A DNA stretch of 60,838 nucleotides from a virus. The translations under genes and the position numbers were made by a program. Of this stretch, positions 19,997-59,276 are shown in pieces; position 1 is the first letter of the stretch, and every line of letters begins with the position of its first letter. Under the pieces are notes generated by a model that worked only from the letters and a program-made list of their open reading frames with translations, was not told the DNA's origin and did not search any database. Location: the IMG/VR virus record IMGVR_UViG_3300048635_000011, positions 1 through 60,838 of that record; one strand, 5' to 3'.

Positions 19997-20148
19997 CAGG
20001 ATGTACCTCAATGGTAGAGGACTTCATTATAGCGGGTAGCTCAGAGGTAGAGCAGTTAAGGCTAAGACCCTTTCCGTGTCGTTGGTTCAACTCCAACCCT
20101 GCTAACCATAGAAAGAAGCAGTAGTAGGTTCGATTCCTACCATCCTGA
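19997..20148 (+). tRNA. Outer tRNA gene, split in its anticodon loop by another tRNA gene
   Basis: The acceptor stem CAGGATG/CATCCTG (19997-20003 with 20141-20147) and T stem GTAGG/CCTAC with loop TTCGATT are perfect. The D arm CCTC-AATGGTA-GAGG has TA at positions 8-9. The anticodon stem CTTC/GAAG (20022-20025 with 20115-20118) closes around 20030-20108, which is itself a tRNA-like gene with CCA. With that insert removed the loop would be about 8-10 nt, so the anticodon cannot be assigned. CCA is not encoded. Whether a mature outer tRNA is made is unknown. Confidence 0.65.
20030..20108 (+). tRNA. Inner tRNA-like gene nested in the outer tRNA
   Basis: The acceptor stem TAGCGGG/CCTGCTA has one G-T pair, positions 8-9 are TA, and the D stem is GCTC/GAGC. 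The T arm is GTTGG-TTCAACT-CCAAC, followed by an A discriminator and an encoded CCA (20106-20108). The anticodon arm is irregular: AAGG/CCTT closes a 7-nt loop CTAAGAC that would show AAG (Leu, CUU), but spacing to the D stem is 2 nt longer than normal and no long Leu-type variable arm is evident. Identity is therefore tentative. Confidence 0.6.
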
Positions 20149-20161
20149 CCTAATTATGTAT

Positions 20162-20252
20162 TATTTATTAAGAGTATTTATAGAGTACTCTTAATAAATA
20201 GTGACATAGCAACTGGAACGAGGTATACATTTAGTACGTTGTTCTCACTATT
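20162..20252 (+). other. Two mutually exclusive hairpins between tRNA genes
   Basis: A perfect 15-bp stem (20162-20176 with 20186-20200, 9-nt loop) overlaps an 8-bp stem AATAGTGA/TCACTATT (20197-20204 with 20245-20252) enclosing AACG/CGTT. Only one can form fully at a time. The first could be a processing or terminator hairpin; the second has a tRNA-like 7-bp closing stem but no D or T arm. Confidence 0.4.
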
Positions 20253-20325
20253 AGGTTTATAGTTTAAAGGTAAAATAGGTAGTGTACCGCACTACAAGAC
20301 TTGGGTTCGACCCCCAATAAACCGT
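20253..20325 (+). tRNA. tRNA-Gly-like (anticodon ACC)
   Basis: Six acceptor pairs (GGTTTA with TAAACC) plus a 1-72 A-G mismatch, T8-A9, D stem GTTT/AAAT, anticodon stem GTAGT/ACTAC with loop GTACCGC, and T arm TTGGG-TTCGACC-CCCAA are visible. The discriminator is T73, normal for bacterial tRNA-Gly, and CCA is not encoded. One extra base follows the D stem. The ACC anticodon would read GGU, a frequent codon here. Confidence 0.6.
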
Positions 20326-20363: not shown

Positions 20364-20448
20364 TGAGGAGCATTGCATAGGTGAGCAATCCAGACTGTAA
20401 ATCTGGTGTCTTAATTTGACTGTGTAGGTTCGACTCCTACCTCCTCAA
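20364..20448 (+). tRNA. tRNA-Tyr (GTA)
   Basis: All arms are canonical: acceptor TGAGGAG/CTCCTCA (7 of 7), D stem TTGC/GCAA, anticodon stem CCAGA/TCTGG with loop CTGTAAA (anticodon GTA), a class II variable arm with GTC/GAC stem, and T arm GTAGG-TTCGACT-CCTAC. Discriminator is A. CCA is not encoded. Confidence 0.93.
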
Positions 20449-58466: not shown

Positions 58467-59276
58467 ATGTATAAATTAGTAGTAGGGCAAGTATGGGAAG
58501 CTAAGAATTTCAAGGGTGTGGTAGTGCCATGCCATCGTAAACATGCTAAGTATGATAACCAATGTGGAAACGCATACAACCATTTAGCTAACTATGCACC
58601 TTATGGATTAAACCATGATGAACAGATAGCTTGGCACAAAGGTAATTTATTACAACGTAGTAAGATGGATTATGATACCAAAGCTTCATTAAACTGTATT
58701 CTTAAGCTATTAAAGAGCAGTGATGTAATGTTAGCTTGCTTCTGTAGAAGTAAGGATACATTACCACATACAGGTAAGAGCTGCCATGCAGAGAACATAC
58801 AGCAACTGGTTAATGAACACAGAGGGAGTGGAAGATACAAACCAATGTTTAAACAGTATTATGATAACGTATCCCTTAAGTTCCTATCCAATATGTACCC
58901 TGTACCCATTGTTGAAGATGGTAGAGAGTACTCTTGTGTAGAAGCTGCTTTTGTAGCTAGTAAGACAGACTGTATTAGAGATAAGGAAGCTCTAACCTCT
59001 ATGAATGGATATGAGGCTAAGAAGTATGGTAGAGGGGTAAAGCTAGTAGACAATTGGAATGATATAAAAGGTGGTGTTATGTGGAGACTCCTTAACAAGA
59101 AGTTCCAGCATCCTAATTTAAAAGCTAAGCTAACCTCATTGCCTAATGATTACCTCTGTATTGAGTACAACCAATGGCATGATAACATTTGGGGTATTTG
59201 TAAATGCCCTAGATGTGAAAATAAGGTACAGCGTAACCTATTAGGTAAGATGTTAGAGGTTATACGTCATACATAG
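58467..59276 (+). CDS. NADAR-domain protein with N-terminal DUF4326-like domain
   Basis: The 269-aa protein has two parts. Residues 1-115 show a DUF4326-like layout ending VMLACFCRSKDTLPHTGKSCHA. Residues about 130-268 match NADAR/YbiA: LSNMYPVPIVEDGREYSCVEAAF, then WNDIKGGVMWRLLNKKFQ, and RNLLGKMLEVIR. NADAR enzymes cleave N-glycosidic bonds of ADP-ribosyl compounds, and some remove ADP-ribose from guanine in DNA. A CPRC pair near the C terminus is an insertion. In a phage it could reverse DarT-type DNA ADP-ribosylation. Confidence 0.75.
   Translation: MYKLVVGQVWEAKNFKGVVVPCHRKHAKYDNQCGNAYNHLANYAPYGLNHDEQIAWHKGNLLQRSKMDYDTKASLNCILKLLKSSDVMLACFCRSKDTLPHTGKSCHAENIQQLVNEHRGSGRYKPMFKQYYDNVSLKFLSNMYPVPIVEDGREYSCVEAAFVASKTDCIRDKEALTSMNGYEAKKYGRGVKLVDNWNDIKGGVMWRLLNKKFQHPNLKAKLTSLPNDYLCIEYNQWHDNIWGICKCPRCENKVQRNLLGKMLEVIRHT

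What the first reader, a model, noticed from the sequence alone, without database searches (positions are those of the whole stretch)
19997..20148. A tRNA gene nested inside the anticodon loop of another tRNA gene
The outer tRNA has perfect acceptor (CAGGATG/CATCCTG), D and T stems, but its anticodon loop is interrupted by 79 nt that form a second tRNA with its own acceptor stem, D and T arms and encoded CCA. RNase P cutting at the inner 5' end and CCA-end processing would leave the outer tRNA as two halves cut in the anticodon loop. These could be re-ligated (a split tRNA whose intron is a tRNA), act as decoy halves for anticodon nucleases, or be a dead relic. ATAG flanks both insert ends.
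Basis: partly seen in the sequence, partly recalled or inferred. Interest (0 to 1): 0.88.

Follow-up and report, generated by a model that had tools for sequence, protein, structure and literature searches.

The report
tRNA-like intron inside a phage tRNA
A phage tRNA gene is split in its anticodon loop by a second, complete tRNA-like gene; the same layout recurs in other phages, where removing the insert restores a perfect tRNA and the genome carries its own RNA ligase, pointing to an unrecognised way of splicing tRNAs, although the copy in this window looks imperfect and may be dead.

Summary
Confirmed. In an N4-like phage fragment, 19997-20147 is a tRNA (acceptor 7/7, D 4/4, T 5/5, anticodon stem 4/5) whose anticodon loop holds a 79-nt tRNA-like element with its own CCA (20030-20108). 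It exceeds chance: 0 of 60 shuffles reach its score. It is not unique. Scans of public viral contigs gave 13 distinct further cases in which deleting the insert leaves exactly a 7-nt anticodon loop and a standard tRNA (Lys, Gln, Arg, Leu, Ile, Pro, Asn). Inserts run from a full tRNA-Phe to bare 44-nt acceptor/T-arm minihelices ending in CCA: they keep what RNase P and CCA-end processing need and little else. All three CCA-type lineages with a long enough contig encode one RNA-ligase subfamily plus a kinase-HD enzyme; 1 of 50 control contigs had that ligase, and it too carried such an intron. I infer excision by tRNA processing and sealing by RNA repair. The window copy is a weak member: joined loop 8 nt, A31-A39 mismatch, no assignable anticodon, no ligase or kinase found in 61 kb; its outer tRNA may be a young relic. 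A tRNA inside a phage tRNA intron was reported once (Lak phages, 2019), without mechanism.

The parts
19997..20029 (+). 5' half of the outer tRNA (acceptor 5' strand, D arm, 5' side of the anticodon arm, loop nt TTA)
20030..20108 (+). inner tRNA-like insert, 79 nt, with encoded CCA (ARAGORN tRNA-Leu(AAG); acceptor 7/7, D 4/4, T 5/5)
20109..20147 (+). 3' half of the outer tRNA (loop nt TAGAA, anticodon stem 3' side, T arm, acceptor 3' strand); discriminator A at 20148, no complete encoded CCA (ACCT)
20029..20032 (+). first ATAG of the flanking 4-nt direct repeat
20108..20111 (+). second ATAG; makes the insert boundary ambiguous by up to 4 nt with the same joined product
20254..20324 (+). neighbouring tRNA-Gly(ACC) of the same small tRNA cluster
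20364..20448 (+). neighbouring tRNA-Tyr(GTA), class II

Best explanation
The insert belongs to a recurrent class of tRNA-like introns in phage tRNA genes. Its acceptor/T-arm domain and CCA end are read by the ordinary tRNA-maturation enzymes: RNase P cuts at its 5' end and tRNA 3'-end processing cuts or trims at its 3' end, so the element leaves the anticodon loop of the outer tRNA. RNase P leaves a 3'-OH on the 5' half and 3' processing leaves a 5'-phosphate on the 3' half, the ends that T4-type ATP-dependent RNA ligases join. In phages with the RNA-ligase and kinase-HD cassette the halves are sealed into a normal tRNA. In the window's own copy excision is likely, but re-joining to a working tRNA is doubtful (8-nt loop, no ligase seen), so the outer tRNA there is either an imperfect member or a recent relic. 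Shown: anatomy, exact 7-nt loop restoration, insert series and ligase association in other phages. Inferred: every enzymatic step.
For: Thirteen distinct further cases with a joined loop of exactly 7 nt: Ile, Lys x4, Gln x2, Arg x2, Leu x2, Pro, Asn. Every insert has acceptor 7/7 and a T arm of 4-5 bp; 11/13 end in NCCA, 11/13 have U at -1 and 12/13 have G at +1. With the anticodon masked, the body matches tRNAs of the type named by the joined anticodon in 10/13. Inserts grade from full tRNA-Phe (L065) to non-decoding tRNA-likes (L348, L397) to 44-nt minihelices (L069, L093, L150). Between L093 and L473 (95% identical locally) all 3 changes in the nested gene are unpaired. All three CCA-type lineages with contigs of at least 27 kb carry one RNA-ligase subfamily (56-69% identical), against 1 of 50 control contigs. 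That one control (G041) proved to hold a tRNA-Gln with such an intron. Ligase-guided search: 5 of 12 unselected ligase+ records carry introns, 0 of 7 ligase- controls. A kinase-HD end-healing enzyme lies 2-4 kb from the ligase where checked.
Against: No expression data: no splicing, halves or junction reads were seen. The window copy has an 8-nt joined loop, a mismatched 31-39 pair, no assignable anticodon, poor body similarity, A(-1)/U(+1) at the 5' cut and no ligase or kinase in the 60.8 kb held (a fragment). L097 restores a perfect tRNA-Asn but has no CCA, and its 116-kb contig gave no ligase. Ligase+ phages are loosely related, so the association may be partly shared descent. The finders favour intact outer helices, and the later ones also T33 and a 7-nt remainder.
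Confidence: 0.55

Rival explanations
1. Relic: in this phage a tRNA inserted (by slippage or recombination at the ATAG microhomology) into the anticodon loop of another tRNA. The inner RNA is still matured; the outer tRNA was killed and its halves are a young pseudogene.
For: Joined loop 8 nt, A31-A39 mismatch, anticodon unassigned; Pro-like body but loop not Pro, low similarity to any tRNA; no ligase or kinase in 60.8 kb; ATAG at both ends; many phage tRNA clusters contain broken tRNA 3' fragments.
Against: 20 of 21 outer pairs are Watson-Crick, which decay would soon erode; the same layout with exact 7-nt loops recurs in other phages.
Confidence: 0.4
2. Decoy halves: the outer tRNA is never rejoined; its two anticodon-loop halves act as decoys for host anticodon nucleases or bind RNA-repair enzymes.
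For: Processing would leave halves cut in the anticodon loop; several of these phages carry RNA repair genes.
Against: A decoy does not need an exact 7-nt joined loop or an anticodon matching the tRNA body.
Confidence: 0.06
3. The insert leaves by another route (self-splicing, or an unknown splicing endonuclease recognising the outer tRNA), and the tRNA-like fold only gives stability.
For: Lak phage tRNA introns carry a further 5' hairpin segment outside the tRNA-like part and have no CCA, so more than one route may exist.
Against: The window region matches only tRNA families in Rfam; minihelix inserts of 44 nt keep only acceptor, T arm and CCA.
Confidence: 0.12
4. Chance or assembly artefact.
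For: A single contig for the window copy.
Against: 0 of 60 shuffles reach the outer score. Exact cases recur in separate metagenomes: L069/L470/L484, L093/L473, L150/L435, L397/L437/L450, L552/L553/L559.
Confidence: 0.02

Closest known systems
Lak megaphage tRNA introns, including tRNA-Thr(TGT) whose intron may encode a tRNA (Devoto et al. 2019, PMC6784885)
   Same: A tRNA-like element inside the anticodon loop of a phage tRNA. Lak-A1/Lak-C1 comparison shows clean empty sites for Thr (114-nt intron at 36|37) and Gly (about 87 nt), and Lak genomes encode phrog_968-type RNA ligases.
   Different: Lak introns have a 27-31 nt 5' hairpin segment before the tRNA-like part and no CCA. The phage class found here starts at the tRNA-like acceptor stem, usually ends in NCCA, and splits at 34|35 or 35|36. 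Devoto et al. proposed no mechanism; they called the introns enigmatic.
T4 PseT/RnlA tRNA repair (kinase-phosphatase plus RNA ligase)
   Same: Phage RNA ligase and end-healing enzyme acting on a break in the anticodon loop (T4 annotation).
   Different: The ligases here are phrog_968/DRB0094-like and the healer is a kinase-HD fusion; the break would come from tRNA processing instead of a host anticodon nuclease.
Archaeal/eukaryal tRNA introns (splicing endonuclease, bulge-helix-bulge)
   Same: Intron in the anticodon loop; exons ligated.
   Different: Canonical position is 37|38 (PMC4090602: one nucleotide 3' to the anticodon); these split inside the anticodon and the insert is itself tRNA-like.
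Group I introns in bacterial tRNA anticodon loops
   Same: Position in the anticodon loop.
   Different: Self-splicing ribozymes of 200 nt or more (own knowledge); here 44-115 nt, and no group I match in the window.

Membership tests
tRNA-like phage introns with exact anticodon-loop restoration (class defined here) | Insert with 7-bp acceptor stem and T arm, in the anticodon loop of a second tRNA with intact helices | tested here: met
tRNA-like phage introns with exact anticodon-loop restoration (class defined here) | Encoded NCCA at the insert's 3' end | tested here: met
   ACCA at 20105-20108
tRNA-like phage introns with exact anticodon-loop restoration (class defined here) | Joined anticodon loop of exactly 7 nt with an assignable anticodon | tested here: not met
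   8 nt TTATAGAA, ARAGORN '???(atag)'
tRNA-like phage introns with exact anticodon-loop restoration (class defined here) | RNA ligase encoded in the same genome | tested here: inconclusive
   none in the 60.8 kb held, but the record is a fragment; not met in L097's 116-kb contig either
Lak-type phage tRNA introns | 5' hairpin segment before the tRNA-like element, no CCA | tested here: not met
   window insert starts at the acceptor stem and has CCA
tRNA (RF00005), inner element | Score above Rfam gathering threshold | tested here: met
   45.4 bits against 29
Group I intron | Match to a group I covariance model | tested here: not met
   only tRNA families match in the window
Archaeal/eukaryal tRNA intron | Bulge-helix-bulge at the exon-intron junctions and splicing endonuclease | not tested
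   no motif search was made
N4-like phage (Schitoviridae), host genome of the window | Giant virion RNA polymerase, N4-type primase, SSB and portal | tested here: met
   phrog_2206 vRNAP, phrog_2135 primase and phrog_743 SSB, phrog_1216 portal

The most novel reading that the evidence does not exclude
Some phages have a tRNA-splicing pathway in which the intron is a tRNA mimic: RNase P plus tRNA 3' processing serves as the splicing nuclease and a phage RNA-repair ligase joins the exons. This would be protein-assisted, non-self-splicing tRNA splicing in a bacterial system, arisen from tRNA processing plus RNA repair. The window shows an early or decaying stage in an N4-like phage.
Probability: 0.5. 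Interest if true: 0.9.

Novelty: new variant of a known kind. Interest (0 to 1): 0.72.

Why it matters
Bacterial tRNA introns known from the literature are self-splicing group I introns; a cut-and-ligate route without a dedicated splicing endonuclease has, as far as the held literature shows, not been described there. The series from full tRNA to minihelix suggests how an intron could arise from a misplaced gene, and bears on the old idea that tRNA splicing grew out of RNA repair. It also offers an explanation for the 'enigmatic' Lak phage introns and gives a marker (ligase plus kinase-HD) for finding more. Standard tRNA finders mis-call or miss these genes: ARAGORN with introns allowed did not report the window's outer tRNA.

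Tried and rejected
ARAGORN with intron options did not report the outer tRNA. No close DNA relative of the window in cultured phages, no exact copy of the 5' half in IMG/VR, and no primase relative by peptide pattern; cultured relatives are at about 46% primase identity. RtcB (PF01139), PF09511, PF09414 and TIGR02307 searches of the intron contigs were mostly negative; TIGR02306 and phrog_968 then found the ligase. T4 Rnl1 and the L433 ligase found nothing by phmmer, and a 366-aa KMDG protein of G010 is a DNA ligase. L238, L298 and L330 were rejected as 3'-half duplications (int/att-like), not nesting. Many hits of the T-arm patterns are an intact tRNA followed by a broken 3' fragment and were rejected. 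L173 has an RNA ligase (phrog_548) and a tRNA-like insert but an unclear outer anticodon arm; not counted. Remote ligase homologues (35-45% identity) showed no intron in their flanks. BLAST of exact cases against cultured phages found no full-length copy.

Full report
What is in the window. The window is a 60,838-base IMG/VR virus record from an N4-like phage: 4156-aa virion RNA polymerase, N4-type primase and SSB, portal. Between 19.8 and 20.5 kb lies a small tRNA cluster. ARAGORN and Rfam report three tRNAs: an inner element at 20030-20108, tRNA-Gly at 20254-20324 and tRNA-Tyr at 20364-20448. Around the first, two half-tRNAs (19997-20029 and 20109-20147) form a second cloverleaf with 20 of 21 possible pairs, all Watson-Crick, and the MFE fold of the 152-nt stretch contains the outer helices. 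No candidate of this quality with an insert of 130 nt or less occurs elsewhere in the window or in 60 dinucleotide shuffles of it. One correction: removing the insert leaves an 8-nt anticodon loop (TTATAGAA) above a mismatched A31-A39 pair; ARAGORN recognises a tRNA but assigns no amino acid.

Is it alone? I scanned public viral contigs for two T arms spaced too closely for tandem tRNAs and wrote a detector for tRNAs split in the anticodon loop. In block shuffles of the same loci the best score was 26.3; the real top cases score 33-36. Leaving out int/att-like 3'-half duplications, the top cases are tRNAs interrupted by a tRNA-like insert whose removal leaves exactly 7 nt: Ile(TAT) CTT|ATAA with a 44-nt insert (L069, L470, L484); Lys(TTT) CTTT|TAA with 44 nt (L093, L473) and with 86 nt (L348, later L552, L553, L559); Gln(TTG) CTTT|GGA with 45 nt (L150, L435); Pro(TGG) TTTG|GGA with 67 nt (L397, L437, L450); Arg(TCT) CTT|CTAA with a complete tRNA-Phe of 76 nt (L065); Asn(GTT) CTGT|TAA with 46 nt and no CCA (L097). 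L025 (tRNA-Ile inside) leaves 10 nt. The joined halves are called as the named tRNAs by ARAGORN.

Why this looks functional in those phages. First, exactness: 7-nt loops with Y32, U33 and a purine at 37. Second, identity: with the anticodon masked, the rest of the joined tRNA most resembles tRNAs of the type named by the joined anticodon in 10 of 13 cases (Gln 12/12, Pro 12/12, Leu 12/12, Lys 10/12 among the top twelve). The class II tRNA-Leu of L549 even has the long variable arm expected. Third, the inserts: all keep a 7-bp acceptor stem and a T arm of 4-5 bp, 11 of 13 end in NCCA, 11 of 13 have U before and 12 of 13 have G at the first insert base, while the anticodon and D arms may be deformed or missing. 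That is what one expects if only RNase P and CCA-end processing act on them; that minimal RNase P substrates are acceptor/T-arm minihelices with CCA is established knowledge, not tested here. Fourth, L093 and L473, 95% identical over 992 bases, differ at three positions of the nested gene, all unpaired. Joined tRNAs align without a gap over the junction to intact tRNAs elsewhere, including intron-free relatives that carry the ligase (L558 = G068).

Ligase association. RNase P and tRNA 3' nucleases would leave 3'-OH and 5'-phosphate ends, the substrate of ATP-dependent RNA ligases (established knowledge). Searching the whole contigs, phrog_968 RNA ligases were found in G004 (L348), G006 (L065), G010 and G013 (L470, L484), at E = 1e-48 to 1e-68. 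These form one subfamily, 56-69% identical. Among 50 other large contigs, 8 had a strong phrog_968 hit, but only one (G041) of this subfamily; the others are about 25% identical or not detectably similar. Scanning G041 then revealed a tRNA-Gln(TTG) split CTT|TGAC by a 91-nt tRNA-like insert with ACCA, so the association made a correct prediction. A search for this ligase gave further carriers. New exact introns appeared in L548 (Leu, 71 nt), L551 (Lys, 115 nt), G067 (Lys 50 nt and Arg 77 nt in one phage) and L549 (Leu, 47 nt). In all, 5 of 12 ligase-carrying records not picked for introns have one, against 0 of 7 ligase-free large contigs. A kinase-HD protein of about 290-306 aa lies 2-4 kb from the ligase in the cases checked. 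Caveats: the ligase carriers share 5-55 proteins pairwise, so they are not independent; L097 has no ligase in 116 kb; several intron contigs are too short to tell.

Prior art. Devoto et al. 2019 (PMC6784885) reported introns in Lak megaphage tRNAs and noted that the tRNA-Thr(TGT) intron may itself encode a tRNA. I checked Lak-A1 and Lak-C1: the Thr intron (114 nt, A1 only) and a Gly intron (about 87 nt, C1 only) are absent from the other genome without other damage, so empty sites exist. Both genomes have phrog_968-type ligases. Lak introns differ by an extra 5' hairpin segment and no CCA. Jumbo phages are known to carry RNA-repair sets (PMC7824862). I found no paper linking tRNA introns to tRNA processing plus repair ligation; only open-licence papers are held.

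Verdict on the window copy. It has the architecture, but its joined loop is one base too long, its anticodon stem has a mismatch, its body is the second-least tRNA-like of the set (best score 30 against 34-47 for the exact cases), the first insert base is U after A, and no ligase or kinase was found in the part of the genome held. I give about 0.35-0.4 that its outer tRNA is rejoined to something useful and about 0.4 that it is a young relic. The class as a whole is much better supported than this member; every enzymatic step remains inferred until RNA is examined.

Noticed in passing
L249, L296, L333, L325 (genome contigs): Patescibacteria (CPR) genomes also hold a whole tRNA + CCA inside another tRNA's anticodon arm, here after loop position 38 and mostly flanked by an inverted repeat such as CCCGCCTGCC...GGCGGGCAGGT.
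   Followed up: partly
L092, L106, L156: Short (about 50-60 nt) tRNA introns without a T arm that share a motif like GATCCTGATNAGGATAC...CAGCA; no Rfam match other than tRNA was seen among the listed hits.
   Followed up: no
L082: Three tRNAs in one 175-kb phage contig carry similar 64-73 nt loop inserts without a T arm, with a shared motif near GAATGG(G)TTACTT.
   Followed up: no
L213:9305, L135:6969: tRNAs with about 41-nt and 58-nt anticodon-loop inserts that restore CTGT|TAA and CTTT...TTAA loops but lack a T arm.
   Followed up: no
L145:3375 (- strand): A tRNA anticodon loop holds a roughly 210-nt insert that looks like a group I intron by eye.
   Followed up: no
L691-L694 (Lak-A1, Lak-C1): Three Lak tRNA introns share the plan 5' hairpin, then ATTAAA, then a tRNA-like element ending flush at C|(T)AA; this suggests one family.
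   Followed up: partly
window 58467-59276: NADAR-domain protein; the jumbo-phage survey PMC7824862 suggests some NADAR proteins act in NAD-dependent RNA repair.
   Followed up: no
window 20155-20208: Long inverted repeat (TATTTATTAAGAGTA...TACTCTTAATAAATA) just downstream of the nested tRNA.
   Followed up: no
viral contigs: Complete tRNAs followed closely by a lone tRNA 3' fragment (T arm and acceptor strand) are common in phage tRNA clusters.
   Followed up: no
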